From NCBI GenBank assembly GCA_914767715.1, contig OU612075.1:16680001-16744000 (forward strand): a stretch of 64,000 nt of DNA, given 5' to 3'. The number at the start of each line of letters is the position of its first letter. The stretch's first letter is position 1. This DNA is from Membranipora membranacea (Eukaryota; Bryozoa; Gymnolaemata; Cheilostomatida; Membraniporidae). The notes beneath the pieces were generated by a model that was given only the letters and a program-made list of their open reading frames with translations, searched no databases and was not told the DNA's origin. Positions 6,050 through 43,097 of this stretch are shown here, one piece after another. A program made the position numbers and the translations under genes.

Positions 6050-9000
6050 ATGGAGTACTTTAAACTAGTTATCTTCGCAACTGCCCTTGTATGTCTCGCA
6101 GGTAAGGCAGACTTGTTTTTTTGTGGGTGAATTAGTTTGTTGTAAGCAGTGTTGATAGAAAATAAATGTTGGCATCGATGATTGCTTAAATGTTTATCGA
6201 CTTGTAACGGTGGCGTAATATGGTTTACATATTGTAACCTGTTTGATTAACAATTGTCAAAATGCTAAAGGCAAAGGAAAAATGTTGAATTTCTTATTTC
6301 GTGACGCTCGAAGTTTATTGTTAGCATTCTGACAAACTGTTTATTAATGCTGTGCACCTTTCAGTAGAAAAAGGCATGGCTTGGTTTGACTTTGTTCAAT
6401 TATCTTGACCTCAAAGGCCTGGTGCTCAATTGCAGCAAAATTGCTGGACTTTGGGTCTTGCAACAGTTCTGCAATTGTGAACCACAAAAGTCTCAGCAGT
6501 CTTAGGAGTCTCAAGACTCTTGCCAGTCTTGCAAGACCAATCTCAGAAGATTTGTTGCAAGACAGTTGCAATGGGGTATTGTACAAAAATTAATTGTGAA
6601 CCACAGGGCTAAGAATTTGGCTGTATTCATGTTATAATTACACTAAGATGTCAATAAAATCTCAATTCTGCAATCAATTGTAACAAACAATCTTTTTAAG
6701 TAAGATTATTGCATTTATTTAAATTATGAACCATAGAATCTCAAGAGTGGTAAAATTCTTGCAAGAGTCATCCAAGGCCTTGCAAGAGTCTTGAGAATCT
6801 TGAGATCATGTTCTGCTATTGATCACCAGGCTTAAGAGTGTGAAACAATATAACATTTATCATGAGATTGCTGAAATGTATTGTTTTAAATCCTTATCAA
6901 ATGTATTGTCGATGACATAACAATGGTTGGTAAAAATCGTTTAGGTCAATAACAGACAATTTATTTATTTTAGCATTAATCTTTGGAACAGTCAAACAAC
7001 TGCTTTAATTGAATCAGTGCAAGAACTGAACGTTTTTGTTTAAGAAAAAAGATCAATATTTGGAACTTACAATGGCAAGCCTTTATTTTCTTTGGATGCA
7101 TGATTTTGTATCATTCTTTTCCTTATATTGCTTGACTCTGCAGGGCATCCATACTTGCCAAGTCTCCCGATTTAGGCGTGACCCTCCAGATTTTTACACC
7201 CACCTCCCACTTTTTGTAAATCTCACTATTTCCTCCAGATTTTAGAGAAAACAGCCCAATCGCAATTTTTTGATAGTAATCCAAGCACATGTTGTTGTTG
7301 TTGACTAGTTACTGTTAAGGCATTCTGCGCATGCTCAGCTCTGGGCATGAGCTGATCTCTGCAAAATTGAGCCTCGGAATTCCGAAGCCATCTGATTGGC
7401 TACCTGCTCTGGTGGTATGCTCTTCAATGCGTGCGGAATTGATATTGATAGTTATTCTCTCTTGTCACTATTAGCTGATTTTGATTGGGAGTTCATGCAG
7501 GGGCTATCCCATTCTCCCTGACCGAATTTTCTCTCAGAACCTAGACTAAACTCATTGTTCTTGCACATGCGCAATTTAAAGTCACGCATGATTTATACTT
7601 AGCCTTACGACATCTACTTTGTGGTAACTACAGCCTAGTTTATCAGTGATCTACATGCCCAGTCAGATCACGAGAGTCAGTATGCTGTTAAGGTCTTTGC
7701 ACACAAAATTGAAAGGAATTATCAAATTAAAAACTCCTAACAAATTTACCTGTTTGGTTAAGATTCAGCCTATTATTATAAATGACCAATAGCATCCTCT
7801 CATAACTCACAACACTGACTGTCATTGGTCACAATATAAAGTAGCTAGTCAAGTGCATACATTTAGTTTTCATTTCCTTTCAGATCACACATTTTTTAGT
7901 ATTAATTTTGTACTGCCTACTCTAGTTAAATTTAAGTAAAGGGAAATAGTAACCTAACAATTCCAAAGGTAGGTCCACTACAATTTAACAAAGCTTGGAC
8001 CAAAGACTTTGAAACATATTTAATGTTAGTCAAACAGGAATATAGTACCTTATCTGGATTCTCACTGTCTGTGACTGAGCACACTTTCAGATCTTGATGA
8101 TGCATGGGCACTTGTAGCCTGTCTTGACAGGCAAGGGTCCCTGGGACTTACATGCCTCTACTTTGCCAATGGGGTGTTTGATACTGGACATTGACAATGT
8201 AAAGGCATGTATGTAAGAGTCCCAGTGGCCCATGGATTGATTGTAATTGTTTAAAGAGTGTATTTCACCTCAGTTTGATATTTTAGTACTAGTACAAACA
8301 TGAAATTATTTGGGGTCAAATATACCTTTTTAGCCCTTCCCAGTGGCTGGAAACGCTCTCAGAGCTTTTTCAGACCCCCCCCAAACCCCCAGGTGGGTGA
8401 CTCGGGTGCTTCGCACCCTCGAAGCACCACGTTGTGGTGCAGTATCGCCGTAAAATGGAATCTCCCTATTTTGAATTTAGATTACTTGGCAAGTATGAGG
8501 GCATCACAGAAGATATGTGATGGATGAAGCAAACTTGTAATCTGGGCAGTAGTGGAAATCCAAATTGGATAACAATGATGTACATCAAGTATCAAAAACA
8601 TGAGACATGTTGGTAGAATACTGCGACAACATTGAGGTGAAAAATTCTGTATTTGATATACAAAGACAGTATCAAGCCATTCCTGGACATTGGACATTGG
8701 ACATTGGTTCTGTTGGATAATCATTATGTTTTATATTTTATTTTAAGGCTTTGTGGCAAGTAATCCTAATTGTGATTGCAAAAGCATGTGCTTGATGGAA
8801 TTTGGAAACACAGCAAAAGGCAGCATATATGATGAAGGACTATGTGTATGCCATTTTCTGCAAAAAGTCGGCAAAATAACCAAGAAGAAAGAAAACTGGG
8901 GCTGTCCATCCTTCCAGACTTGTCAAAACAGATGCAGGGCAAAGATAACAGACTTTGGGGCGGACATTGTGAGAGCTAAATGCACAGGACCTAATAACAT

Positions 9001-9772
9001 GAGGTGCAAATGCAGGTTTTTTATATATGTTCCTGTTATTTTGTATTGCCCAACAACAACCACCATACCAACAACTACAACCACCATACCGACAACTACA
9101 ACCACTATACCGACGACAACAACCACCATACCAACAACTACAACCACAATACCAACAACTACAACCACCATACCAACAACAACAACCACCATACCAACAA
9201 CAACAACCACCATACCAACAACTACAACCACCATTCCAACAACTACAACCACCATTCCAACAACTCCAACCACCATACCAACAACTACAACCACCATACC
9301 AACAACTACAACCACCATACCAACAACTACAACCACCATTCCAACAACTACAACCACCATTCCAACAACTACAACCACCATACCAACAACTACAACCACC
9401 ATACCAACAACTACAACCACTATACCAACAACTACAACCACCATAACGACAACTACAATCAATGAAGCTATCTCCTGTTTTGATGCCTGCATTTCTGAAT
9501 ACAACAGCACACTTTCAGAATGTATTGAAGGGGGTTGCATCTGTCAGGTAAGAGAGTTTGTGAACACCAACAGAGAACAAGGTAGAGGCTGCCCAGATGA
9601 TGAAAACAGATGTGCAGGTGAAGGTCAAAGATGTGATAATCGAATGGATCGGTTCCCTAATGCAACCATGTTTGAAGGAAGGTGTGATGGGGGCGTATGT
9701 GAATGTGACTATTATCAGATGGTTGATCGTGAAGCAATAACAAGCAATGAGTGCTCGATACCAGGGAAATAA
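6050..9772 (+). CDS. secreted mucin-like protein with four Cys-rich (defensin-like) modules
   Basis: Two exons, 6050-6101 and 8748-9772, join in phase to give 358 residues. Exon 1 encodes little more than a signal peptide (MEYFKLVIFATALVCLA). Exon 2 starts with a five-cysteine module, then a full module with spacing C-x5-C-x3-C-x15-C-x7-C-x-C, starting at the GCPSFQTC motif near base 8900. Next come about 19 units of PTTTTTI (probably O-glycosylated), then two more modules: C-x3-C-x10-C-x4-C-x-C, and C-x6-C-x6-C-x16-C-x4-C-x-C. The CxxxC...CxC pattern is that of cysteine-stabilised alpha-beta (CSalpha-beta) peptides such as arthropod and mollusc defensins. That link is inferred from spacing only. 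A role in mucus or epithelial defence is plausible but unproven. A polyadenylation signal AATAAA is at 9852-9857. Related genes lie at 27.3, 28.7 and 33.4 kb. Confidence 0.75.
6415..6833. mobile_element. MITE-like element with terminal inverted repeats, in the intron of the mucin gene
   Basis: The left end (AGGCCTGGTGCTCAATTGCA) and the inverse of the right end (AAGCCTGGTGATCAATAGCA) match closely, enclosing about 420 bp without coding capacity. The interior is rich in variants of a CTTGCAAGAGTCTTGAG motif. This fits a non-autonomous DNA transposon. Target-site duplications were not resolved. Confidence 0.6.
9050..9455 (+). repeat. 21-bp coding minisatellite, about 19 units (PTTTTTI)
   Basis: Units close to ACAACTACAACCACCATACC repeat with few substitutions and no length change. 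In the gene frame they encode PTTTTTI. The other two forward frames (NNYNHHT and QQLQPPY) and at least one reverse frame are also stop-free, simply because of the unit's composition. Confidence 0.95.
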
Positions 9773-9857
9773 GAAACATTGAATCTATAAACATCAGGGT
9801 AGAATCTGTCTATATAACAACCTTCACAACATCGACTACATACAACAAGTCAATAAA

Positions 9858-12241
9858 ACTCAAGAACTGACAATAACTTCAACTCCTCAACTTCACAAGA
9901 AAACAGTTGATCAACAGGCCTATTACAGTAATGTTTTATCAATTAAATCAAACCATTTTGACATTTGAAATTTTTTATCTATTGATTTCATTTACAAATA
10001 AGATAGATTCTTCGAAATTATAAATACTCTAATCACAGAAAAAACAGAAAATCACAATCAGTTAAAATGAATATAATTATTAATACATATACATTTTCTG
10101 AGGTTTACAAAATCCATGAAGTGATAGATCCTACTCAGCAACAGAGATGAGACCTAGTAGTTATTTCATAAATAATTTATAGTAATATTAACTATCTGTT
10201 TTATCAGTAAAATTAACTTTCATTATAATAATAAAATGATTTGTTTTGGTGTTTTGAACCGCAGTTCTCCATATCATTGTATTATAAGATCTACCGTAAA
10301 TTTCTATTCATGCCCAATACTACATGTATGTGATTTCTTTGTCTAGGAAGGCCCCCTGTAGTTTGAATAATGGAGTTATATTATTTTCTGCAGCATCCTT
10401 GTTAATTTTCGAAATAAAAATAGTTGTAAGACTATATATTGGTTTGGTCTTTTGGTAGGTCTTTCTTACTCAAAACACCAAAAACGGCGAAATATGTGAT
10501 CCAAACATCACAGGGTACACTTCCTGATGCAGATTAAGTTAAATGACAACACCGATTTTAAATCAGATATATTATTGTCAAATATAACTATAGGTGGTCA
10601 AGGGAGGCCAATTGATTGAAAGTTTCTCTTTAATCCATAGTTTTACTACTCCCTCATAACATTTGGGCTCCCTGCATACAAAGCTGTCTTTAATTTCTTA
10701 GGAGAAAAATAGGGCCTTCTTCAATTCTAAGACCGTCATCCTCAGAATAAATTGTTCAAAACCGAACCTAAATGTGAAGAACTGAGCCGAGTCAGCATTG
10801 GGCAAAGTTTAATAGTGAATGAAGGTGAACTTTTCTTCAATTTTGCCTCGCAATGGGGAAATCTTCTCCACATGATTCATTCAAACTGAACAAATTTAAA
10901 AATAATTAATAACACAAAATTTTCAATCTTCAGTGAATAAGCAGGGAGTCCCGGTAATTTATAAATCAGAGTGGTGATCACCTCTGATGGCCAAATATGA
11001 CAAGCCATGTAAAAAATAAAATCATATTTCTTTCTGATCCAGAATATTTTCATTATACTTTTTGCAATTTCAGTAGCTGACTCCAAATGTTTTGGCAGTG
11101 TGAGCTTTTTTCCAATAGATTTAAGCATCGTAATGCATGGATAAAATAACAGTCTGTTGGAAGAGATTATTTATACACACCAAATGGATAACTATACTGA
11201 CATTCTATATGGTCAGTTCTGTATGATTCAGGAAAGTATACCAACTGTTCACCATATCATATCCTTTCTCACTTCACACAGGATGGGCGATACGAGTCAA
11301 TTTTCTAACATCAAGGTATTCATTCTTCAGGTGGTAGGTTATTCCCAGACTGAAAGATTCTCCAACACCAGTAGAGTAGTATTGGTTCGGCTTGTCACAA
11401 AAAGATGAAGCTGTCATCGCGTTCCCATTTAGGGTTGAAAGCTTTTTCTGTTGCGATTGTAATAGTTTGGCTGGATATCTACTACCATAGAAAAGCTCAT
11501 CTGTGCTGGAGATGGGGCAGGCATAGAAACATCCGTAAACCGTTGAATTTAATGCAAGCATAAGTGTAGAATTGTTTCAGGGGCAGTAGGAGAGTGTGTA
11601 TATTGGGAATAAACTGAACTCTAATCATGTTGGTGTTGAAATCACAAATCAGTTTATTTGCTATGTGTTTTTTGCCAATCTTTTTTTATGAATGTTTTTA
11701 TTTTTTCTTTCGTTCTTATAATCCAAATGATTACAGGTAAAATATATGGAAGCGCTTTACGCATTTCAAATCGTAAGTATCGTTATTTCCATTAACTTGT
11801 AATGCATGCTTTATATGATCCGTATCACATGTTAGAAAAATTTTTACAGGGAAGAAGATAAATAAATCAATCAAATTTGCATCCACTCATCCAATTCTGG
11901 GTGCCTGAATAAGTGAACTATTAATTGTAGTTTTTCTTAATAAATGGTTTTTATTTTTTTACAGCTCTCTCCTTTACTGAACCTAAATCCAAATAATGGT
12001 AATTTTAAATACTCTGTTTAAAACACCCTGGTCGAAATGAAGCTACATACATACATACATTACTGCAGTAACAAATGTATTCCTGGATTTACATATGTTT
12101 CTAAATGCTTATATCTGGCAGGGTGATGAGCTCTTTCATGTAAAGCTGATATTGTTTTTTAGTAAAACCTATACTGGTAATATTGAACAAATAATAAAAC
12201 ATTTTCACCGAGCGCGGTAAAAGAATAACAATGACTTAGAC
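9858..12241. other. 3' flank of mucin gene, then spacer
   Basis: Bases 9781-10480 are the 3' UTR and flank of the mucin gene, and they are duplicated at 16.85-17.72 kb. From about 10.5 to 12.2 kb no gene, RNA or clear transposon was recognised. Confidence 0.6.
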
Positions 12242-15200
12242 TTGGATAGTACTTCATCTTCCTCTGAACCTATACTGGTTTTCACAATGAAACCTGAATC
12301 AACTGAGGAACATATCACCCAAGTGCCATATTATCTGGATAAGATAAATGCCATTCAGAAGAAGCTGGATAGTACCTTTAACCAAACATCTACTATAGAG
12401 GTTAAGGGCACTACCAAAAACCCGCAAATAGTGATTGTATGTAACACCGCTGCATTTGAGTGGATCAAAACATCACTACCGAACTTTCTCAAAACTAAAG
12501 ACATTCAAGGTGTGTGTTCTAAGTTAACTGTTGATAAAAGTGGAGCATGTGTTAGTGTTTCGAAAAAGCTAAAGAAAAAAGGAAAAAAAAGTTTATACTA
12601 TCAACTTTTATAATACGACATCCACTATTTTGGTGAATGGAAATTCAGATATTAACTATTTCATGGCTCACTATGAGGAACTCATGTCTAAGATGCCTCA
12701 CCACGATGTTGACGATGCCAACCAGGATGATCAATCAATCTGCCACACAGTTCTGGCATGTGTGAAAAACTATGAAAGAGATAACTTCTCAGACGAAAGT
12801 AATATGGATACATCGATCAATAGTCCATCTTTCACACATAACAAAGATGATGCTGCTGAGCCATCCCTCCCAACTCACCCTGTCCCATCAACTTCATCAA
12901 ACGTTGAAAGTGAGTCATCAAAGGGTTTGCCTTCCCATCCTACCACCCCTTCCCAACAGAGCCCAGTCAAGCACCAGAGCCCAATCAACAATACCGCCAG
13001 TCCTAGATCACCCATCCCCAAAACCTCATCTCCTATTATCCAGTCTGACATAGATATCACTCATGTTCGAACTGCTCTCATAAATTCCTCTCCCATCCAC
13101 CAACAGCTTAAATCTGCAACCTTTAACAGTAGACAAGCTGAGACAGGAATACATGACCAACTCACTCCACCAAACAAATCAAGAGAAAAATCAAGATCTC
13201 CTCTCAATAAATCGATCCCTCCACCGATCTCTGACTTAAGTTCTTACCCGCCAATTTCTTCAACACCTAACAAAATTCTAGACTGCAGTCTAGATATGTG
13301 GAAGGCTTTGAACAAGTCACTGCAGTCAAGAATTCAAGAATTGGAAGAGGTTGTCAATAACCAGGCCCAGATCATCCAACAAATGCAAGAGAGCAGAAAC
13401 AGCGAACCATTAACCAATAACACATTACGTGCACACCTTAACCATTTCTCAGAAACTATGGAGCAGAAAATTAACCATCAACAGTTCTGTGTAAAACAAC
13501 AACTGGAATCTTCTATCAACCAGAAATTTTGAACGTATGCACAGGTTGCTGGAAAAACACAAAGTCACGACACTGGTGCTCATGTTTCCCCCTCCATACC
13601 AACACTACACACTTCCACTCAACAAAACCAGGCAAAACCTTTATCCCGACCATTATTCTTCCAATCCCACGGCAGGCCTTCCCATTTACCACACCATAGT
13701 GGATCACCAAACAATAATACCCTTCACAGCAGAAAGTTAAAACTCAAATCATCCAGTAAGGACCAACACAGCTCAGACCATCCACAGCCAACGCATAGAG
13801 AACCATTTGCACCTGAAAGAAACATTATCGTTAATATCGAGAAAGACTCACCTTTCCATTTAAACTACAACCAAGATATTACTCGACAAGAGATCTGTAA
13901 ACATTATGGTCTAGTGATTGTAGAAAAAATAACGCCATCTAAGTTTAAGTCAGATCATCCAAAACTGGCCATTTAATTTAGAGATACTGCTGCATCTATA
14001 AATATTGTATCGGAATGGAATTGTCTCCTCTTTGGTGGATCGACTGCAAGGAGACCACAAGACCCCAAGACTCAGAATTTAAACTGTGCCATGATGTACA
14101 ATGTCCCTAAAGAAGGCAGTAGCAATGATATAGAGCAAGATTTCAAAGCAGTTTATCCGGAGGCCACTATTGAAAGACTCTCAAAAGGTGGTAAGACCTT
14201 GCGCACTGTGAAGGTAACACGCTATACACAACGGTATACCACCAACATCTTTATTCATATATTGTCACCTATCAGAAAATTCAACTCCAAATGTCTAGTA
14301 ATTTTACTCAAGGCATGAAAGTAGCTCATCTAAATATTAGAGGGCTTACAAGCAAAATCGATGAAGTTAAAAAGATCTTACATGAAAATTATCTTGATAT
14401 TTTTTGTTTATCTGAGACTTTTCTAAATGAGTCCAAATCAAGTTGTTTTTTTCATATATCGAACTATAATATTGTAAGACAGGATAGGAATACTGGTCAA
14501 GGAGGGGGTTTGCTATGCTACATACGTGTTGGTATTTCATTTGAAGAGGTCAATGTTGCGAACCATTCAATGCCTGAGTCAATTACTTTGAAAATCTCCC
14601 AAACCCACTCACAATCTTTTTTAACATGCTTCGTTTATCGCCCACCTAGCGCACTTGTTGATTGGAACCATGTCTTCACTCATTACATCGAGAACAATGT
14701 ATCAATTTGCAGGGAAGTAATCATTTTGGGTGATCTTAATGTTGACCTCAGTCATAACAGCACATTGGTCAGGTGTTTTAGAAATGTCATAAATCCACTT
14801 GGACTTACACAACTAATAAAGGATTTTACAAGAATTGCAGAAAATTCTGAATCTATCATTGATCACATATACACCAACCAACCAGCCAATGTTCGTTCTA
14901 GCTTAGTTCTGAAATACTCTTTAAGTGATCATTTTTTGGTTATGGCAATACAAAAAAGGGTGTTGTGAAATCAGAGCAAAGAATTAAGATAAATTTCAAC
15001 GATTATAGCAAATTTACCGATGAAAATATACACCAATATTTCAGCAATGTTGACTTGCACCAATCTCTATGTTACAGCAACATTAACCATGTCATAGAGA
15101 ATTTCAATGACACTTTCTTAAATTTAACATCAAAACTTATAATACGGAGGACTCGCTATGTCAAATCTGAGGTCCTTCCTATGTGGATTGATGATGAAGT

Positions 15201-16800
15201 GCGTGATCATATGAGACTAAGAGACCAGTATAAATCTCAAAAGTTATGGGATTTTTATAAAACTGAAAGAAACTTAGTCACTCACATGATAAAAAGAAAA
15301 AGTATATGACAAAACTGGTTGAAAATTCCAAAGGCCATAATACCAAATCATGGTGGAATGCGCTAAATATCAGAAACAAAACTAAAACTTACATTGACAA
15401 TGCTGCTATATTTCTAGCATTTTACATCTATCGCTGCGAAGCTATCAAAAGATTTTTCTTTGATTTCTGATTTTTCTAGTACTTTACCAAATTACCACTA
15501 CAAAGGTTTGAAACAATTTCCAAAATTGACAACAGTCTCATTGCATAAGCTTCTAAAATCAATACCCATAGGCAAAAGCACTGGTCCTGACCAGATTTCA
15601 GTTCGGATGTTAAACAAAACATTTGTGGGGTAATGATGGTTAAAATCGCAAGTGTTGTCTCCGTCCGAGGACTGAAAAATATTAGTGCCTTAAGGGCGCG
15701 GCCGCCGTATTCGGCGCCAAGTTGCTCTCAGTTTGCAGGCAGGTCAAAGCACACCTGGGGCGTCATATGAGCCCAGTAGTCAGTAGACCGCAGCGGGATT
15801 CAAACCTACGTAGTTCCAGTGCTCACAGATATTTTCAATAGTATTTTAGATGAAGGAGTATTTCCAAAAGTCTGGAAAATTGCTCGCGTAACCCCTATTT
15901 TTAAGTCAGGGTCAAAAGATGACCCAGGAAATTATAGATCTATATCAGTTTTACCCATTCTTTCTAAGATATTTGAAAAGCATTTGAATATTAATATTCA
16001 GATATTTTACTTGACATCAATATTGGGGTTCCGCAAGGTTCAATACTGGCACCAACTTTATTTCAGATTTATATAAATGACCTACTAAATCTACCTCTCT
16101 CCTCGAACTCTTATGCATATGATACTGTTTTTGTAGCAAGCCATTCTGTTCCCTCTACTTTAGTTCAAATGTGTAATCGAGATTTGTTTTCAATCAACAA
16201 GTGGTGTAAAAATAATCACATGACAATAAATTATAAAAAATTCTTTTGGGGAGGATTCATCATTAAATTTGAAAATTGACAATAACCAAATATTTCAAAG
16301 ACATGAAACTGAACTTCTTGACTCGTTTTCATTGAATGGTCATTGTGAGACTGTTTTGGATAAGGTGTCAAAAAATACAAACTTACTCAAGCTATGCAGA
16401 CCCTACTTGACCACACATTCTGCTAAACAATTTTATTTTCAATTTATTCACTGTTATCTAATTTATGGTATCCATATGTATTACAACTTATGTGCATCAA
16501 ATATCACAAACCCGATTTTCACTCAGCAAAAAAGAGCCTTGAGGATTGTGGCCAATGTTCAACATATACCTTTTTATTTGTCACCTACTAATGACCTATG
16601 TACATCACTTAAAATTTTACCCCTTCCAATACTGAGCAATTATTTTACTTGCATTAAGGGATTTAAGGCCCTGAATAATAGAATATTGACATAGTCTTTT
16701 TTTTTGTTGAATCTTTGTTTGTATCATTTTTCTTTTTTGCCATTTATGTCACATCATGAAAAACATTAGTAATAATGAATTGTTGCTGACAATAAAAGAA
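12242..16800 (+). mobile_element. decayed CR1/Jockey-like LINE, internally deleted and interrupted by a SINE
   Basis: ORF1 remains at about 12242-13532, split by a frame change in an A-rich run near 12590. It is followed by a Ser/Pro-rich stretch and a short coiled-coil-like end. An apurinic endonuclease domain starts with VAHLNIRGL near 14320 and runs to about 14968, then shifts frame. RT pieces follow: a FKSGSKDDPGNYRSIS block near 15900 and a GVPQGSILAP block near 16025. The RT between those blocks is partly missing. The catalytic motif, normally ADD, reads YAYD near 16110, so the first catalytic aspartate is lost. The C-terminal part (LLKLCRPYLTTHSAKQF near 16390) and a 3' tail ending in AATAAAAG near 16790 remain. 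Outer ends are approximate. Confidence 0.85.
15640..15830 (-). mobile_element. tRNA-derived SINE (5'-truncated), inside the LINE
   Basis: This insert interrupts the LINE reading frame between VRMLNKTFVG and LTDIFNSILDEG. It shares AATATTAGTGCCTTAAGGGCG, the TTGCTCTC-GTTTGCAG block and a B-box-like GGTTTGAATCCC (minus strand, 15795-15806) with the fuller SINE at 25.6-25.8 kb. The A-box end is missing here. Limits are approximate. Confidence 0.7.
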
Positions 16801-16849
16801 TATCCATGGTGGCCTGCCCCTTCTATGTTATGGGTATCGGGAAAATGTC

Positions 16850-17720
16850 TACCAGGAGCTTATCTGCTATATCAGACCAAATATCAGACTATTGAAGACA
16901 TCGCCTACTTACAATAAGTCAACAAAACTCAAGAACTGACAACAACTTCAACTCCTCATTACTTAAATCACAGAGGCACACCTTCACAAGAAAACAGATG
17001 ATCAACATGCCAACTGTTTAATCCACCAAAGAGTAGTAAAAACTGCTGAGAACTTTTTAAATGATCAGAATCTTTTATCAGTGCCAAAACAAGAACAGCT
17101 CGATACCATGATAGTTTTATACCAACAAGTATTCGATTTTTAAATGAGCCACCATCAGTCACTTAATTTTGCTCCATCCTTGATGAAAACAACCAATAAA
17201 AATATCATCCTATCTATCTTATCTGTTACAGTAATATTTAATAAATTAAATCAAAACATTTCAACATGTTTTCTATTAATTTAATTTAAAAATAAGACAT
17301 ATTACGATATTTTAAATCAAAAGAGAGAAATAACAGAAAAAAACAATCAGTTACAATAAATACTATTATTAATACGTAATATATTTTCTTGAAGAGATAG
17401 ATTCAACTCAGCAATAGTGACGAGACCTGGTAGTTATTTTATCATGTATACTCACTATCTGTTTTATAAGTCTGATCATTGGGAATAAACTTGTCAAAAT
17501 GTCAAATGTCAAATGATTTGTTTTGGTGTTTTGAACCGTAGTTCTGTATATCATTATATTATCAAATCAAATCTAATACCTCGTGATTTCTTTGTCAAAG
17601 AGGGCCCCCAATAGTTTGAATGAATGAATGAATTTCTGCAGAATCCTTGTTATGTTTCACAACGAACTAGTTGCCAGACTATATATATTGGTTTGGGTAC
17701 TTCAAATTGGAGCCCAGATG
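16850..17720 (+). repeat. orphan duplicate of the 3' flank of the 6-9.8 kb mucin gene
   Basis: Long stretches match 9781-10480 in the same order: an AAAACTCAAGAACTGACAA block, a TTCACAAGAAAACAG block, the TTTTGGTGTTTTGAACCG block and the TATATATTGGTTTGG end. A short insertion lies at about 16990-17220. No coding part of a second mucin gene remains upstream, where the LINE now ends. It is best read as the relic of a tandem gene duplicate whose body was lost or replaced. Confidence 0.8.
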
Positions 17721-18501
17721 AGTATCACTGCTGGAACATTGATCCCAATTCCATTATTCTTAAAATATAACAGATCTCAGGTGCTAAGCAATCCACAGAC
17801 AGGACTGTAAACTAGCTCTGCTTGAGGGAGTTGTTTATTTTGAGGTCTATACACCGCCCCTTGTTATCGCAGGAGCTAAAACATGCTCCTTCAACAGCCG
17901 ATTGGACAAGTTCATCCTTGCCCATGATCATACGTAACTGCCTGTCTATATCAAGTATTAATGTATAAATCATTCCGATTGTGAAACTCAACAGTGAAGT
18001 CACACTCAGCTTAGGAAGTTACCTCCTTACTTTATTTGTCCGTCCAAGAACTATGATAGATTTTTAAACAGGATTTATGCTGAATCTACTCATGTCAGTA
18101 ATTCAGAAGTAAAAACAAATCTTCATTTTGGTCGACCCATTTTATTAATATATTATGATATATAATGTACATTCAATAAGCAGCAGACAAAAAGTTCTAA
18201 AATAAATACCCATCACCGTCGATTACGGAGGCATTAACAACTACTTTCAAAAAACACACACACCATGACACCCTCAGAATAGTGGTAAGATATGATATCT
18301 AACATCAAAACATCAATGATCATATTATGAATAAAGAAATGACTTGAAATGGAGTTCATACCAAATCCTTAAATTTCCCGCAGACATACTTCCTCTTGAG
18401 TACTACGGACGGACAAAACGGACAGATGTTCCTAAGATATCATGTAGGAAAATAGGTTGCCAACTTTCCATATCACAGATAGTTGCTATCCTTTCTTACT
18501 T

Positions 18502-24500: not shown

Positions 24501-27500
24501 TCTCTTATCGATAGAGAGTGAACTAATTAATTTAGCATGAGTACCATCACAAGGAATTTGGTGAGACGACCCAAATTCAATTTAACCAAATAAGGGCGGG
24601 TACATGTTAAGTACTTGACTATAACGATCAGAGATACACATGATAATAGTGTAGTCTTGATGTAAGTGTGTCTAAGGCTCAGGCTCAGGAGGAGATACTA
24701 ACCCATTTGTGTTCTGAGGTCAGCGTATTCTTTATTCATATATCGCTGCCGATCTGTCTGTAGTTCATACTCTTTCATCAGTACCTGATTTCTGTTCACC
24801 TGCTCCATAAACTTTACTTCTATCTCCTTCATTCTGTGCTCCAGTAAGACCTTCACAGAAAATAATACAATAAGTAGATATCGTGATGAGAAGAGGTGGT
24901 GGAACTCTGTATATGATTGGGAGTAAAATGGGAGCAGCAACAACATCAAAGTAAGCAAGTAAAACTAAACATGATTACCGTATAATGAGGAAAAAAACAG
25001 TAGAGGAAACACAGTAAAAAATTTACAGATCACTTAAAAAGTTGGTCGTCATTTGTGTAGAGATTGAGATAACTTGAAAATACTATGATATAAGACTGCC
25101 AAATATATTATCGCATATATTTATACTTTGGATATTGGAGAGTACTCGCCCTGGGTAATAGACTGTGTTTGTCCAGGAGTATATATATATATATATATAT
25201 ATATATGATAACATATAATATATTATATATATATATCAATATATATATGTTCAATTTAATGAATATATGATACGATCTATATATATATATATTAATATTT
25301 ACAAATATATATAATATATATTATGGTTCACCTTATCATCGAGAGCCTTATCTCTCTCTTTCTGCATCTGAGTTTTAATCATCATCATTTCCTCAACTCC
25401 TGACTTCTCCTTAGTAGCTATCATTAGGTGCTCATACTTCTCCTATCAAATAAAACAGCAAACAACATGGCAGAGAAGTCACAGAATCTGGCGTATTGGT
25501 TTTCTTGTCGTTACAGTATTATTTAAAAATGGATGACAAAAATCAAGCTGTCATATCACACGCCACATCTCGAAGCATGGGCGGCAAAATATTAATTGCC
25601 TTAGGGGCGAGACTGCAAAATCTGTGTCAGGTTGCTCTCTGTTTGCAGTCAGGTTGGAGCACACCTGAGGGCCAACCGACCCCAGTAGTCGATGGACTGC
25701 AGTGGGATTCAATCCCTTGACCTTCAACATTTGCATTTTTAAAGGAACGGTGCTCTAACCAACTGAGCCACCTCCTACCCGATGATAGTTCTAGCGCTCT
25801 GTTGCAATAACCCAACCAAGATCTGTGTCCGAGGGACCAAAATAAATCATCATTGAAGGGTCAGCAGCCACTCTGATCACGTCTATCTCTGATCGATAGA
25901 GAGTGAATTAATTCACTTAGTAAGAGTACCATCACAAGGAATTTGGTGTGACGACCGGAGTTCAATTTTATTAATTAGGGGCGGGTACATGTTAGGTGCT
26001 GCTACTCACGATCAGAGATACATATGTTAATAGTATAATCTCCATGTCAACGTGGTCAGCAGCTGCAGGAGCTGTCAGTTTTATGCTTAGCTGACAGGTA
26101 GCTGACAGGTAACCTAACCTACCTGATTTGTTCTGTTGAGTTTCATGAGTTCATTGAGTCTCTCTTTGGTCATCTCTAAATCTTTCTTCAGCGAAATATT
26201 ACTCTCCTTCAGTATATCATAATCATACATCTACAACAAAGGAGGTCAGGGGACAACAGGGTCAACAATGTCAGGATAATAAGAATAAGTACAGGTTACC
26301 TCACATCTCAGTGCGACAGCTTGTCAATGGCTACTGCAATTTACACCTTTAAAGGTCACTTTGTGAATGATACATGTGGTATCATATGAAAAGGATGATC
26401 GTACCATTAGGTGAGCAGCTCCACAATGATGCAGCATGCCTATACATGCCCTTGTGTATCTGGAGATGTCTTACACAATATTGGCAAATCAGTTGATCAG
26501 TAAGAATATGGTAACATTATCATGTAGGCCTAAACCTAAGGTTTGTTGATTTTTCGTAGTTATAGAGCTTATAACCACAAACGTGAGTTCGCAGTACACT
26601 ATTAAATCCCATAAACATACATTATATTTCACATTCAAAATATTCATTTAAATCCTGCAAGTTTCCAACACATCCATCATTGCAGTAATGATCCTCATCA
26701 GTTAAGCCAATAACACCAAAATAATGGTGAGCGTAAGCTGGTGAACCATAGACTTAATATTAAGCTCATGTGGTGGGTCTATGAGCCATCCCTAATGTAG
26801 TATAGTGGTATGAAATGAAGAGCACACTTGTTTGATCCTCACAACGGGCCACAGCATCTGCCAGTATAACTTGGAAAGCAGCACTCATTCTGATCGTGAC
26901 TCTGGTTTTTACAGAGGGTAAGCATTTTTCATTGCATTGTTGAATTTCAATTCAGCTCCAACTCTACCCCACAGATCTATGAGGGGGGGGGGGTGGAGCT
27001 TGTTTAATTTAAAACTGTTGAGTTTTTATCTTGTATTTTTTCTTGATGTAAGAACAAGACCTAGGAGGTCTCACTCACTCTGAAATCACTCAACGCTATA
27101 TATTGCCTTTTCTTATTGAAGTGAACGATTTAGGAGCAAAATGATTTGGTCACAAGACTAATAATTAGTTATTGAATTGAGCAAAGCAATGGGCCTAGTT
27201 AGGTTTGAGCGCATAGCTCTTGCTCATTTAATCTCTTTGGAGAACAGACGAAAGTTCTCTGACCTGATTTTTCTAGTTTTTCCTTCATCATATCATACTA
27301 CAACCTAATTGGTTTGTATTCTCCTGTCACAGTTCTAGCGAAGCAAAAAACGGCATGCAAAAACTACTGCACATCAATAGGCTTTAAAACAGGAGACTGC
27401 AGAGGAGAGAACGCTGACTGCAGATGCTGTTATAAAACTGACGTCAAGATCAAGAGCCTTGAGTGGGGTTGTCCAGCCGTGGAGGCATGTAACGCAACAT

Positions 27501-30500
27501 GCAAATCTAATGTGGATAAGTATGGAGCTACATGGGCTTACGGAGAATGTGTAGGTAACAAGGGTCTAATGTGTAAATGTAAATACATCCTGAAGAAGTG
27601 TATACCAGCACCAGTAACACCTCCGACAGTAAACGACTTTTGTAGCCTGCCTGTAGATGAGCTACTCTAAACAACTAAACATTGGAAAATGGACTCTCTA
27701 ATATGAACAATGTGTTTTAATTAGAGTGCAAATAAAACCATGATTATGTAGCAGAGAGTTTTTGACTAGTTTCCAAGTAACTTGTTGCAGCAATATGTCA
27801 TTACAACTGAGCTGACAATTCAATATTCTTTGTCATAAATAAATGCAACAAAACATGACTGATATATTGCAAGTGTAGAATATTTTTGAGGGCATACTTA
27901 GCTAGTTTTTATATTATGAGCGCATTACAATCCAGTCTCATACACTTTCACATCACTAATATAACCAATAAAGAGGGATATATAGGATTCATACTGCTCT
28001 TGTGGTTTTAAACGGCAAAAATATTGTGACATTGTGCCTCCCCCCCCCCCCTCCTTCATGATGATGTGACAAGAGGAATTTGCCATTTAACGACATAGCA
28101 ACAACCCTGGCATTATTGCCCCACGAACACAGCGAAGCTGATGAGATAGATGATTGAAATTGGGGTACCTCCCCATTGTATTTTAGATCTATTACCTAGG
28201 GTATAACTTTAAGGATAAGTATACTTTTGTGCCTACAGACATACTGAGAAAGTGTTGCAGAATCTACCTCTTTTTTTATTAATCAATAATAGAAAACCTT
28301 GTACAATCAAGTCAAGGAGTTAACTCATTGATCTAGGCCTACATGTCTCTAAATTTGTCTACCATGAGTCACCAAATCATTTCCTTATACCATAATTATG
28401 TCTACCCAATGCATGGGTGGACTTCACATTGATGTGTGGAGTATCAAACATGACCAGGTACACAAGGGCGGGGAAGAAACAGATACAGCAAAACTGCCAA
28501 TGAAATTAAGATTCTGCAAAGTTTTCCTCAACCTCAACTCAACCAAAACAATCCAACGCCCAAAATAGATATTTCTTATCGATTCTGTTCATGAGCATCA
28601 CATTTCTATTCTTGTGAACTAGTGGCCTCGCCCCTTCCTCGTCATACTCTTGATTTTTATAAATCTCAATTTGTGTATAAAAAAGGTAAAAAACGATATT
28701 CACCATCAGTACACACCAACAGTCTACAATCAGCACCATGGCTCAGCTACATATATTTCTGCTTCTGGGACTAGCATCAGCAAGTCTCATAGGTAAGTAT
28801 CTCATTGATTTACTGATTTGTGCTATCATAAAACCAAATAATTGATGCAGTACTTGGAATGGAATATCTTGATCAGATTCAAATGTTTGATGATAACAAT
28901 AACATAATAAGGCATATACTCTTTCGATACAATTTTCTGACATGAATATTCTCTTTTCTTTCATCAGCGTTCACTTCAGCTGCATCTGGGGGATGTCCTG
29001 ACAGTTATAAATGTCAAGCAGTATGTGAAGGCTTATTTCCTAATATGGTCAACTCCTCATATTGTGATCAGTATGAATTATGTGTGTGTAAGCATTCAAG
29101 CATACACATGCACATCATACCTCATGAGACAACAACCTCACCACCATCAACAACCTCACCACCATCAACAACCTCACCACCATCAACAACCTCACCACCA
29201 TCAATAACCTCACCACCATCAACAACAGCTGAACCAATGACCTCAACAACAGCTGGACCAATGACCTCAATAACAGCTGAACCAATGACCTCAACAACAA
29301 CTGATGTCCTACCACCCTCAAATACCTCTTCAACAACAACTGGTGTGAATGGAACAACGACTATCGTGACAACTGCTCATGTAACTTCTCCTCCTGTAAC
29401 TCCTGCTCAAATGATATGGGAATTATTACCAGGTAATAGTAACACTATAACTTTTATCCTGATCAACAATTCAAAAGCAGTAACTTCATTTTTTTTGGTT
29501 TCTAAGAATATTGAGATACTCTTCACTCATACTGAGTTCAATCTGTATCATAGAAGTGGATGCCCTCAAAGGTGCTAGAGGAAGGAACAATAAATCTAAA
29601 AATGCTCTTCAAATGGCTAAAAATAGCAATCGAGCTAAAAGATCGTGCAATCTCTCTTCAATAGGAAGGATTGATGGCGTTAGCAAGACAAAATTCAGTA
29701 CTTTGAGTTATTTGCCATTCCGTCATTGCCACCCTGTTCAATACAGTGAATGCTGTGTATTACGGTTGTTAACTGTGAGACCTTATCCTGTTTGTTTTCA
29801 GTTGATGCATGTCCTGACTTGGCGAAGTGCGCTAAGGAGTGTGTTGATGAGCACGGAGAAGCTAAAACGAGCGGCGCAAAATGCCATGGTCCGGGTAGAG
29901 AATTCTGCTCCTGCAGCACCTCACAAACTTAGAACTGCCTTCAATTTGTTGATAAATCCAACTGTTTGCTATGAAGGAAATTTGTAGCATAAATCACTTC
30001 CTCAATTCTTGTGCTTAGAATATTAATATATATGCCTTTCCATTTTCACTGCAATTTATTTTAGTATATTTTACTAGCAATGCCATTACAAATTTCAATA
30101 ATTCAACACAGCTCCATGACACATCAACTTTTAACATTTGAGAAACCAATATCAGGGAAACCAGGTCTTTTACTTGGTACCCCTACCTTACGGTCCCCGA
30201 CATGCACATTTAATTGTCCAACACACCTCCCTTAGACTTGCTCATGGTTGGGTCTAGCAAATAGGAAAATGTTGAATCCCCTCCTGAGTTTTTTTTTAAA
30301 TCAACTCTTTCTGACATCCAACATGCTCCTTTCCTGTTTTCTAATCTTAGATTCTATCAAATAAAATCTTCATCTTTCTTCGCATACAAGCGTTTTGATT
30401 TTGCTCAACAGGTTTGTGTTCACCATAGGGAAAAGATTAAAATGCTTATATGCAAAAAAAAGGAAATTCAGCTGTTGAAAAACCATAAATTGGTGTAAAT

Positions 30501-33500
30501 GCTCATACTGTCAACAACTAGCAAGGTAATATTATGAGGATTTTACATCCAACATTTAAAGTTTTTACATATGCCAACAAAATATACCAATATCTGAACT
30601 ATCTATCAGATTCCAAGATTATGAGATACAAACATCAGGGTCAATAGTTATTGGTGTCAATGATTTTCATGATTTCGGAACTATGACTAGATGAATTATC
30701 AGGTAAAAGTAAAGCAGTCCATCAAGGTAAAACCAATCAACCTCGACTAGGACCAATCCATTAGACCTAGGTATACCTGGACATAGGCCTAAGCAATATA
30801 AACCAGATCAAACAGAGACTAGCAGCTGAAACCAGGAACGCAATCCTTACTGTTGGGCTACAGATATCTTATGGAATTCTTCCATGCTAATGTGACTTAA
30901 TTAAAGCGGTTGACTTTAATCCATGCTAGAGCTAGAATTCAAAATCATCACTTGGCTGTACCTGGTGGAAAGAAACCTCGACAAACACACATGAACCCCC
31001 ACAGTAACCACACCATCCAAGAATATGTCCACCGACAGCGCACCAGCATCCAGTTATCTCAAAAACCAGCAGCAGTCACACTACTTTCATTCACATGGAA
31101 ACCAAAAGTCACCCCAAATCCATACACCAATAACAGTAACAGCAAATGCTGCCAGTTACAATCAACATCATACAGGCCAAATAAATAAATGACATCAATC
31201 CCCTAACTAAGCAGTGACCTGGTAGCCACTTCATATAGGACATACGGATCCTTACAAAAACAAGTGTTCAATTCTAAACCATAAACATATATAATGTAAT
31301 TTATGTTAATATTCCTATCAAAGATCTAATCATTCCAAATATCTCATTTGTGTAAGCTGTGCCAGCAATGCCATGCCACTCTTGCATATGTAGTAATATA
31401 TTTCCTATCTGAAATAATTTTTGATCAACATTATTCAATGAGGTGGTAATGTTGTCAATTATTCGACCTATCTTTTGATGTTTTTTACATTGAACAAAAC
31501 AGTAGAATTTGACATTGCCACCAACCATGATGCTCAAAGCTTGTAATTGTACAGATCATATTGGTGTCATGCGCTATTGACTATCAATAAGACAGGAGAG
31601 GTATCACTGTTCAAATAAATAGGAGTAATGTTTCAGGAAATTTCTGCAATTTGGGCTAAATCAAACTTGCATAATAAATGGTCAACAACTCATGAATGTA
31701 TTATATGGTGATAGGCCTTTACCTAATAGTCCCAGCAAGCCATGGGAGGCACAGGAGTTACAAGTTGTATTCTTTATTATTAGAACATGCCTAGTTTTAC
31801 AAATTCACCTAAATGGTAAGTTTGGTAACATAGATTAGTGTTGTATGAATAGATTTGTTAGTTGAATTATGGTAGAAGTGCTTTTCTGAACTGCAGACTG
31901 TAAGGGTGATCAAACAGATGCTGTTATAAAACTGCCGTCAAGAAAATCAACAGCCTTAAGTGGGGCTGCCCAGACGTGGATGAATGTGAAGCAAATTGCA
32001 AAGCAAATGTGGAAAAGTTTAGTAACAGTCCTACTAGGCCATGTTTGGTATGGTTTTAAAGATCTCAGGCTGAGAAGTTATAAGGGCATATGAAATCAAA
32101 CAGCCTGTGAACCTAATTGCAGTAAAACTGCTGCAAAGTCTGAAAATTGGGATCATAGTGGATCATAGTGATTTATTGCCTCCCCCTGACCACTATGATC
32201 CACTATGATCATTGCTAGAATAATTGAAAAAAAAAACAAAAACATTTTTGCCGTATGAACTCACAATAATTGACTTACTAGGGTAATATTTCCACTTTTC
32301 TAATAGGACTGGCCCTTTAAAGCTACATGGGTGACTCCTGGAGAATGTGTATGTAACAAGGGTCTAAGGTGTAAATGTTCATACATCCTGAAGGAGTGTA
32401 TACCGGCACCAGTAACACCTCCGACAGAAAACGACTTTTGTAGCCTGCCTGTAGATGAGCTACTCTAAGCAAGAAAATGGACCCTATAATATGAACAACA
32501 GCTAGTTTTTATATGAGCACATTACAATCCAGTATCATACACTTTCACATCCCTAATATAACCGATAAAGAGGGATATATAGGATCCATACTGCTCCTTG
32601 TGATTTAAAACTGCAAAAATATTGTGATATTTTGCAACCCCCCCCCCCCCCCACTCCCTCTTTCATGATGATGTGACAAGAGGAATTTGCCATTTAACAA
32701 CATAGCAACAACATTGGCATAATTGCCTTAAAACCCACAAACACAGCCCTAGCTGATGAGATGGTTGAAATTGGGGTACCTCCCGATCATATTTTAGATC
32801 AATAGACATCTATTAGCTAGAGTATAACTTTAAGCATAAGTATCTTATTGCCCACAGATATACTGTGTGAGTGTTGCATCAACAGCCGTCTCAATTCACT
32901 TTACCATGTGGCCTCTGCTGAAAAATAATTTATAATCCATCCCTTCATCTCTCTCAATAATAGTAAATCTTTTAAGATCAAGGCAAAGAGTAAACTCCTT
33001 GATCTAGGCGTACATCTCTCAAAATTTGTTTACCATGAGTCACCAAATCATTTCCTTATAAGACAATGATGTTTACCCATGATGGGGTGACATCATTGGT
33101 GTGTGGAGTATCAGACACGACCAGGGACACAAGGGCGTGGAAGGAACTGATATATTGCAGTAACATGATCACTACTAAGATGCAACCAATAGAATTAAGA
33201 TTCTGCATAGCTTTCCTCATCCTCAACTTAACCAAAACAATCCAACGCCCAAAATAGATAATATTTCTTTTCCATTCTGTTCACGTAGATTAAATTTCTA
33301 TTCTTGAAAACATGCGGCCTCGCCCCTTCCTCATTGTTTTGAAATGTCAAATTATGTATAAAAGCGGTAACATATTATATTCATCACCAGAACACCAGAA
33401 TAACCATCTACAATCGGCGCCATAGCTCAGCTACATATATGTCTGCTTCTGGGACTAGCATCAGCAAGTCTCATAGGTATGTCATCAAATCATTTGTAAT

Positions 33501-36500
33501 CTACTATTAAAACAAGGAGACAGCACAAACAAATAGTTGTAGTACTTCGCAGTAAATGTGTTGCTCAACTTTAACTGTTTGATGACTCCAACAAGATCAG
33601 GCGTATAGTGAAAAAGTGTTCTGACATGAATATTTTCTCTTTCGCTTCAGCGCTCACTTCAGCTGCATCTGGGGGATGTCCTGACAGTTATAAATGTCAA
33701 GCAGTATGTGAAGGCTTATTTCCTAATATGGTCAACTCCTCATATTGTGATCAGTATGAATTATGTGTGTGTAAGCATTCAAGCATACACATGCACATCA
33801 TACCTCATGAGACAACAACCTCACCACCATCAACAACCTCACCACCATCAACAACCTCACCACCATCAACAACCTCACCACCATCAACAACCTCACCACC
33901 ATCAACAACCTCACCACCATCAATAACCTCATCACCATCAACAACCTCATCACCATCAACAACCTCACCACCATCAACAACCTCACCACCATCAACAACC
34001 TCACCACCATCAACAACCTCACCACCATCAATAACCTAACCAACAACCTCAACAACAACTGAACCAACAACCTCACCCACAACCTCAACAACAACTGAAC
34101 CAACAACCTCAACAACCTCAACAACCTCAACAACAGCTCAACAAGCAAATTTGTCAACAACAACTACTGTCCCACCACCCTCAAATACGTCTTCAACAAC
34201 AACTGAACAGACAACAGAATCAATGAATAATACCACTCTACCTCTAGCAACAGAGAAATCATGTGTTAGACTGGCTGAGGCAGAAAAAGAAAGAGATGGT
34301 ACTTTGAAAGGTAAGTTAGAGGCATTAATTTATTGACAAATTTTCTTTCCACTGATCCATAATTGCTCTTATCGCCTTCAATGTTCAACCACTGCCTTTC
34401 TATTCAACCCAGCCTTCATTTATGAGGGTTGATGGAGCTTACTTTGTCCATCGTCCAGCTGACACTATCATGCAAATTTACATCGTATTACTGTGTTGTG
34501 ATTTTCAGAAACTGGAGGATGTCCAAGCGTGGTCGAGTGTGCTAAAGCCTGTGTCAAAGAGCATAGAGAAGATGCAAGGGGCGCAGAATGTGATGTTCAA
34601 GAACAATGCTGGTGCTGTCTTCAGAAATTAGTTAAAGATGATTAACTTCCCTACAGCAACAGGAACACAAACAAACCCTCACTCATGACCGTACTACCCA
34701 TGACAAGAACTTAAAACTATCATCTATTTAGGATTAAAATTCTTTCTTTCATTTATTTATTTAATATTGAAGATTTTGGTCCAGCGAGGTATCGCTCATG
34801 ACACCAACCATGCTAGGCCATTTTACAACAATTACTCCTTTCTATTATTTCATTTGATCTAAATTCATGAAATTTCTGCTATGTCAAGAGCAGTTACAAA
34901 TTCATTTTCCTTGATATACACCCTACCTTATCGCTTTGAACTTCTTAGCTACTAATTTGATCGAAAGCAGCCTTTCCAGTTGGCCATTTCAATAGTTCAT
35001 AAAAAACTATTCAAGAATTCCACCAAGAACGTATAACTATTATTTTGGCCTATTGTATTAAATAATGTTGTTGAGTCATCTCCCTTTGAGATTTCAGTGA
35101 CATCTATCGCATCATCTTTTCCTGACATGCAATATGTTTTTTCCACTCTTTCATTTTTGCATTCGGTAAAATAAAATACTTCATCTTTCTTTGCCAACAT
35201 GTGTCTCAAACTTGGTTCTCATAGGCCATAGGAGATACCACCGTGAGAATTCATTTCTTGAAAATGAATTGATTTTGATCTAGATTATATAAACAAAAGG
35301 CATTATGGATCGCACTGATTTCAGTTCGGAATCTCAAAAGTACATACTGTCTCTGATATCTCTATTGAAAAAAAATAGTACTATGAATATACTGTTTTAA
35401 TATATATAGGGTAACATGGATCAGCAGGGTTATACTCAGCATGGCTGTTCATGAAGGTACCCTCTCTTTTTTCGAGATTAAAATTACAAAACACTCAGCT
35501 CATGTGCCTAGCCTGTGTCAAAGTTCTTCACCGCAATCCAGTCGACTCCGCATAAATACAAAAAGGTAATTACCCATAGTTGGTTGTTTTCCTTGTCTCT
35601 AATGTAAGATTACAACTCATTCAGGAAAAAAAAAGATGATAAGAATGCTAAAAAATGTTCATGTTGTCCTGGATATTGCTATGCAGCTTGGGATAACGAC
35701 AAGGATGCCAGACCAAGGAGTTAAAGACTTGGTCTGACATCCTTGTCTGACTAAGCATGTTTAAAAAATTCAAATGCAATCTATATCACTGCACGCTGCA
35801 CACACCAGTTGTTATGGAGGTGATCAGGGTAATTGGATATAACCAAGTCATAGGGAAGGCGTGTTTTAAGAAACATGTCTGAGGCTCAAACCACTTGACT
35901 AGGAGGTATAAAAGGTCCAGTCAACATAACGCATACCAGGTGCAGCAGAATTGTGGGATACATAACCCTAACCAAGTTATACTCCGAAATTCCACTCAGA
36001 AAGAAGAGACGACACATACTGTTTGCACTGAGATATGTATCAGTTGTAATGTTTTCAACGTATCCGCTGCAACTGACATGGGCTCTTATTGATTCTGACT
36101 TTAGATAACGCATAGATTTATTGCCAAATGGGAAGTACTAGCTGTAAGACATCTAGCTGAATCTGTAATGCGCTCCATCAAATACTCATAAAATATACAT
36201 GTGTATCTGCCTCTATCTTTAATGATGAAGGTATATTTAATCAGCTGACATTGATGACTTTCCACTTTTTTGATGATTCACCCAAATCTGGAGTCTACTG
36301 TCAAATCAACTACATTTACTACAACCAATTATTAGAAAATTATTCACTAATTGTTCACTGTTAGCCACTTGTGCATCATCATTTGACTGAGAACGTCATG
36401 TTGGCTAGTTAGGTGAGCAGTGACAGCGAGGCTTCACTATTTGGCCCACTAGAATGTAGTACATTCATAGTCCACAGAATTCATGTTCATGTCAATATAC

Positions 36501-42989: not shown

Positions 42990-43097
42990 AGCTAAACAAG
43001 TCAGAAGAAGAACAGCCATTTGCAGTGAAATAATACTAAAAGGCAGAAGAAAAAACTTTTAATTTTTTTTTAGTTTCTTGCCTAAAGAGCCGCCACC

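What the first reader, a model, noticed from the sequence alone, without database searches (positions are those of the whole stretch)
6050..34645. A family of secreted proteins joining defensin-like (CSalpha-beta) modules with mucin repeats
Three intact or near-intact genes (6.05, 27.3, 28.7 kb) and two decayed ones (31.9, 33.4 kb) share cysteine spacing C-x5-6-C-x3-C-x12-15-C-x5-7-C-x-C. This is the CSalpha-beta defensin pattern with a longer third loop (arthropod defensins usually have about 9-10). Three architectures occur: two modules alone, module-mucin-module, and two modules-mucin-two modules. I know of no named family with this arrangement. The spacing is seen; the fold and a defence or mucus role are inference.
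Basis: partly seen in the sequence, partly recalled or inferred. Interest (0 to 1): 0.88.

Follow-up and report, generated by a model that had tools for sequence, protein, structure and literature searches.

The report
Bryozoan defensin-like modules with mucin spacers
A sea-mat genome carries a small family of secreted-looking proteins built from defensin-like modules, in some genes joined by a threonine-rich mucin-like spacer, an arrangement that looks new although the modules resemble a very old and widespread fold.

Summary
The observation largely holds. The window lies on chromosome 11 of the bryozoan Membranipora membranacea, judged by assembly sizes. The reported cysteine pattern occurs six times, each in frame in a gene model, and in 0 of 60 shuffles. 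Profiles, a steric signature and one AlphaFold model support a CSalpha-beta fold.

Corrections. There are two module kinds: a 5-cysteine A type with a classical loop, and a 6-cysteine 'GCP' B type with the longer loop. The 27.3-kb gene shows no ATG, so two genes here look intact (6.05, 28.7 kb). The genome holds an intact four-module paralogue without mucin 3 Mb away and a relic. At its middle linker the 6.05-kb gene carries a 135-residue Thr-Pro tract, a 21-bp tandem repeat.

Best reading: secreted double-headed CSalpha-beta proteins whose probably glycosylated spacer holds two disulfide-rich heads apart at mucus or cuticle surfaces, likely for defence. The fold is supported by computation, strongly for A, modestly for B; defence is inferred, and three of four sequences are not cationic. 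New variant of a known kind.

The parts
6050..6101 (+). g1 exon 1, ATG and signal-like peptide, phase-1 intron follows
   Evidence: splice signals, frame; signal peptide judged by eye
8748..9772 (+). g1 exon 2: modules A, B, Thr-Pro tract, C, D, stop; whole protein 358 aa, 25 Cys of which 1 in the signal stretch
8771..8851 (+). g1 module A (5 Cys; Cys4 position holds Ile, one extra Cys upstream)
8903..9013 (+). g1 module B (6 Cys, GCP type)
9053..9457 (+). g1 mucin-like tract, 135 aa with 97 Thr and 19 Pro, about 19 copies of a 21-bp unit
9476..9544 (+). g1 module C (A type, 5 Cys)
9590..9706 (+). g1 module D (B type, C-x6-C-x6-C-x16-C-x4-C-x-C)
26866..26917 (+). g2 signal-like exon without ATG (in-frame TGA upstream)
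27333..27670 (+). g2 exon 2: modules A (27356-27427) and B (27470-27580), 14 Cys
28738..28792 (+). g3 exon 1, ATG and signal-like peptide
28968..29432 (+). g3 exon 2: B-type module 1 (28994-29089) and Thr/Ser/Pro tract (about 29126-29420)
29802..29932 (+). g3 exon 3: B-type module 2 (29810-29914), stop
31889..32468 (+). g4 relic of a g2-like exon, frame broken
32026..32311 (+). inserted element with terminal inverted repeats inside g4
33422..33476 (+). g5 exon 1, g3-like signal exon without ATG at the g3 start position
33651..34310 (+). g5 exon 2: module 1 (33677-33772), tract with an in-frame stop
34509..34645 (+). g5 exon 3: B-type module 2 (34520-34615)

Best explanation
A small bryozoan family of secreted CSalpha-beta (cis-defensin fold) proteins. 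The basic unit is an A-B module pair. A duplicated pair (A-B-C-D) without mucin exists in an intact-looking paralogue on the same chromosome; in g1 a 21-bp tandem repeat at the B-C linker encodes a 135-residue Thr-Pro tract, probably O-glycosylated, that would hold two disulfide-rich heads far apart. g3 has single B-type heads on either side of another such tract. Proposed working: secretion onto an outer surface, where the stiff glycosylated spacer hydrates and anchors the protein in mucus or cuticle and the two heads bind microbial surfaces with avidity. Supported by computation: reading frames, homology of the pairs, fold. Inferred: secretion, glycosylation, tissue, ligand, defence.
Confidence: 0.55

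Rival explanations
1. Structural or adhesive protein of mucus, cuticle or settlement glue: the CSalpha-beta heads are cross-linking knots and the Thr-Pro tract a spacer, with no antimicrobial work.
For: Near-neutral to acidic sequences in 3 of 4; long Thr-Pro tract; PMC5234102 (passages) reports many CSalpha-beta peptides of negative or neutral charge and one tested typical member without inhibitory activity on its strains.
Against: Tandem genes that duplicate, decay and exchange sequence look more like defence genes than a conserved structural gene; only suggestive.
Confidence: 0.25
2. Ion-channel-directed or other toxin-like secreted peptides, used against predators or competitors.
For: A-type profile hits are all scorpion potassium-channel peptides (12 of 12).
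Against: The match covers the shared Cys framework only, and such peptides are well represented among short CSalpha-beta entries of the PDB (recalled). Multi-module proteins with mucin spacers are not a usual venom layout (recalled).
Confidence: 0.07
3. The modules are another Cys-rich fold that resembles CSalpha-beta by cysteine spacing alone.
For: Only weak single-sequence matches; shuffled controls with the same spacing also found CSalpha-beta chains (0.29 and 0.33, 1.8); the B profile is hardly better than its controls.
Against: Real A profile is over a thousandfold better than its best control (1.6e-4); small residue at -2 of Cys4 in 13 of 13; predicted helix-strand-strand.
Confidence: 0.08
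4. A dying gene cluster without present function.
For: g4 is interrupted by a repeat element, g5 has no ATG at the g3 start position and a stop, g2 shows no ATG.
Against: g1 and L006 have open frames and look constrained; g3 has an open frame.
Confidence: 0.05

Closest known systems
Invertebrate/fungal CSalpha-beta defensins (BmKDfsin3, micasin, MGD-1, arthropod defensin)
   Same: GCP start seen in the BmKDfsin3 alignment, then C-x3-C ... C-x-C; top three and fifth of the 7 B-profile hits
   Different: Single module, cationic as a rule; loop between Cys3 and Cys4 is 12-15 here in the regular B modules
Scorpion potassium-channel (KTx) peptides
   Same: A-type C-x3-C ... GxC ... C-x-C core
   Different: A type lacks the first Cys and sits in a larger secreted-looking protein
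Plant defensins (gamma-thionins), with bi-domain MtDef5
   Same: Fold of B in the model; MtDef5 shows two fused CSalpha-beta modules (start of abstract in the listing, PMC5700942)
   Different: MtDef5 has a 7-residue linker and is highly cationic; no mucin spacer mentioned there
Bizyarsin two-domain fungal defensins
   Same: Two defensin modules in one chain (passage, PMC5234102)
   Different: Fungal; no Thr-Pro tract mentioned in the passage
Big defensins
   Same: Reported from the transcriptome of a bryozoan, Flustra foliacea (passage, PMC7203481)
   Different: Trans-defensin disulfide class (recalled for big defensins); no Pfam match to them here

Membership tests
CSalpha-beta (cis-defensin) superfamily | Framework C1...C2-x3-C3...C4...C5-x-C6 | tested here: inconclusive
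   B type: 7 of 9 modules of g1, g2, g3, g5 and L006 have all six with C-x3-C; the two D modules have C-x6-C. A type: C-x3-C and C-x-C in 5 of 5, but the first Cys is missing in 5 of 5 and Cys4 in 1 of 5
CSalpha-beta (cis-defensin) superfamily | Small residue at -2 of Cys4 | tested here: met
   13 of 13 modules scored, g1 A counted at its aligned Ile
CSalpha-beta (cis-defensin) superfamily | Helix packed on a two/three-stranded sheet | tested here: met
CSalpha-beta (cis-defensin) superfamily | Disulfides C1-C4, C2-C5, C3-C6 | not testable with these tools
CSalpha-beta (cis-defensin) superfamily | Sequence-profile match | tested here: inconclusive
   A profile 1.6e-4, 12 of 12 hits CSalpha-beta; B profile best 0.071 against 0.23 for its best control; no Pfam curated cut-off passed
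Antimicrobial defensin | Cationic mature peptide | tested here: not met
   g1 -2, g3 -9, L006 -13; only g2 exon 2 is positive, +5 (whole sequences)
Antimicrobial defensin | Kills or inhibits microbes | not testable with these tools
   needs assay
Mucin-like protein | Tandem Thr/Ser/Pro-rich repeats in a secreted protein | tested here: met
   repeats; 97 Thr of 135 residues; secretion inferred from the signal-like exon
Mucin-like protein | O-glycosylation | not testable with these tools
   needs glycoproteomics
Gel-forming mucin | VWD/C8/TIL domains | tested here: not met
   no such Pfam match up to E 10 in the g1 exon 2 or g3 exon 2 and 3 products

The most novel reading that the evidence does not exclude
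The A-B pair is one composite, interlocked 12-cysteine fold: module A has lost its own first cysteine, and the extra seventh cysteine behind module B takes its place, tying the two CSalpha-beta modules into a ring-like unit. All four pairs in g1 and L006 hold exactly 12 cysteines (5+6+1, counted on the sequences), also g1 A-B, where the Cys4 position is lost and another Cys has appeared nearby; g2 holds 14. Two such units on a mucin rod would be a new kind of double-headed defensin.
Probability: 0.3. Interest if true: 0.65.

Novelty: new variant of a known kind. Interest (0 to 1): 0.5.

Why it matters
It would document CSalpha-beta proteins in Bryozoa. In the listings of searches (15 of 20 shown; 7 of 7; 8 of 8) I saw no title or abstract start about such proteins of bryozoans, but I opened only a few of these papers; [quoted passage not shown] The surprise is the layout: a multi-module defensin fold set on a mucin-like rod, with a paralogue without the tract that shows the very linker at which the tandem repeat sits. 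It makes testable whether tethering and double valency replace positive charge in surface immunity.

Tried and rejected
Database homologues: three searches of the 5.8-billion-protein set (g2 exon, pair alignment A2, L006 protein) found nothing at E up to 1, 10 and 10; how far that set covers bryozoans is unknown, so this does not show lineage restriction. NCBIfam: 1 of 6 proteins hit, actinodefensin at 0.15. Defensin_2 over the whole genome: nothing, but all controls were silent too. Gamma-thionin over the whole genome: 7 hits up to E 10, none over the cut-off, best 0.72, g2 only fifth at 3.95, and 4 of 14 control genomes rang as well; of the other six hits I looked at two (L016, L019) and saw no clear family member. 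The single-sequence PDB search of g2 had a non-defensin first at 0.3 and plant defensins second and third (0.94, 7.5). A place on C5 matching g3 module 2 at E 3.6 has a stop and was not counted as family. Other bryozoan genomes could not be searched here. A second AlphaFold job (g1 C-D) and a full Foldseek search were never accepted because of the queue. The control shuffles come from two modules only (g1 C, g2 A); the shuffled profile rows were realigned by the tool.

Considered and dropped: skeletal protein (no evidence either way); a ShK, Kazal or WAP type (spacing does not fit, from recall; not tested apart from Pfam).

Full report
Origin. The window is G000:C11:16680001-16744000 of a 339,339,785-base genome in 18 contigs. 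C11 is 23,367,560 and C5 is 29,963,023 bases. The Membranipora membranacea assembly is 339.4 Mb with chromosome 11 at 23.37 Mb and chromosome 5 at 29.96 Mb (PMC10290214, abstract start and passages). I take the organism as this bryozoan; it is identified by sizes, not by name.

Observation. The quoted cysteine pattern occurs six times in the window's six frames, all on the + strand and each in frame in a gene model, and 0 times in 60 dinucleotide-preserving shuffles. The A-type pattern occurs twice (g1 C, g2 A) and 0 times in the same shuffles. Gene models by splice signals and frame (composition): g1 6050-6101 and 8748-9772; g2 exon 2 at 27333-27670 behind a signal-like exon that shows no ATG; g3 28738-28792, 28968-29432, 29802-29932; g5 33422-33476, 33651-34310, 34509-34645, without an ATG at the g3 start position and with a stop in the tract; g4 a broken relic. 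No transcript data were available, so the models are predictions.

Two module kinds. Aligned pairs show an A type of mostly five cysteines without the first Cys of the defensin framework, and a B type that begins GCP or ACP and has six. Between Cys3 and Cys4 the A type has 9-11 residues, the regular B type 12-15. The D modules of g1 and L006 are B-type but with C-x6-C-x6-C. Profiles of the two kinds align with each other (hhalign probability 68, E 4.9e-5).

Family in the genome. Six protein searches of the genome gave the five window loci, a relic on C5 (L003) and an intact-looking paralogue L006 on C11, about 3 Mb away; the tool calls such counts lower bounds. L006 encodes 233 residues: a signal-like exon, then A-B-C-D with 24 cysteines outside the signal stretch and no Thr-Pro tract. 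In g1 the tract lies between B and C, behind Tyr-Cys-Pro-Thr; L006 has Thr-Cys-Pro-Thr-Cys there. The tract is about 19 copies of a 21-bp unit whose CCA ACA codons also stand at the L006 linker, so a tandem expansion from that spot is likely; the direction (gain rather than loss) is inferred. g1 and L006 are identical at 36 of 98 and 38 of 103 aligned residues of the two pairs, with saturated synonymous sites (pS 0.78 and 0.77) and pN 0.44 and 0.46, both frames open, which points to selection on the protein.

Disulfides. The four pairs in g1 and L006 have 12 cysteines each, five in A/C, six in B/D and one behind; g2 has 14 (counted). This is the basis of the novel case; bonds could not be tested.

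Function. Three of four sequences are not cationic. I therefore prefer a tethered, double-valent surface-binding role over a free lytic peptide. This is inference from anatomy. Pairs of defensin modules are known (MtDef5, abstract start in the listing; Bizyarsin, passage). A defensin fold joined to a mucin-like tract was not seen in the listing of one search (15 of 16 shown, none opened); one search returned no paper; one mussel CSalpha-beta paper held none of four such terms (PMC7168163).

Local history. g2-g3 and g4-g5 are a segmental duplication (27900-29226 against 32500-33909, 78% over 1444 columns). g3 and g5 differ by 1 of 158 bases over the exon-2 start with module 1, while intron 1 is 66% and the tract 69% alike, with no synonymous difference in 49 codons: recent gene conversion is the likely cause. 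g4 is split by an element with inverted ends; 39 further copies were scored, of 745 candidates.

Verdict. Novelty is in the architecture, not in the fold.

Noticed in passing
28968-29217 and 33651-33900: g3 and g5 exon 2 are 157 of 158 identical over 28968-29125 while the neighbouring intron is 66% alike: probable gene conversion tract.
   Followed up: partly
32026-32311: About 286-bp element with inverted ends inside g4; 39 other copies scored of 745 candidates.
   Followed up: partly
20650-40631, - strand: Exons that look like an OFD1-type gene (LisH_2 match 3e-6, 26.6 bits against a cut-off of 27, at 40344-40631; coiled-coil exons by eye; OFD1 is recalled) seem to run on the opposite strand across the g2-g5 cluster, which would then lie inside its introns.
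   Followed up: partly
474-2147, +: Open reverse-transcriptase frame (RVT_1 2.9e-31), a retroelement.
   Followed up: no
12200-16700, +: Non-LTR retroelement remains between g1 and the cluster (by eye), endonuclease domain at 14195-14965.
   Followed up: no
55901-56212, -: Ribosomal protein uL2 exon (Ribosomal_L2_C 1.3e-19).
   Followed up: no
43086-43727, +: Start of a Lys-rich coiled-coil protein resembling GAS8/DRC4 (recalled; no Pfam hit).
   Followed up: no
9920-10447 and 17223-17696: Dispersed repeat, 69% alike over 545 columns, on either side of the retroelement region.
   Followed up: no
L003 1495-1617: Relic on C5 of a g2-like B module with a similar C-terminal tail.
   Followed up: partly
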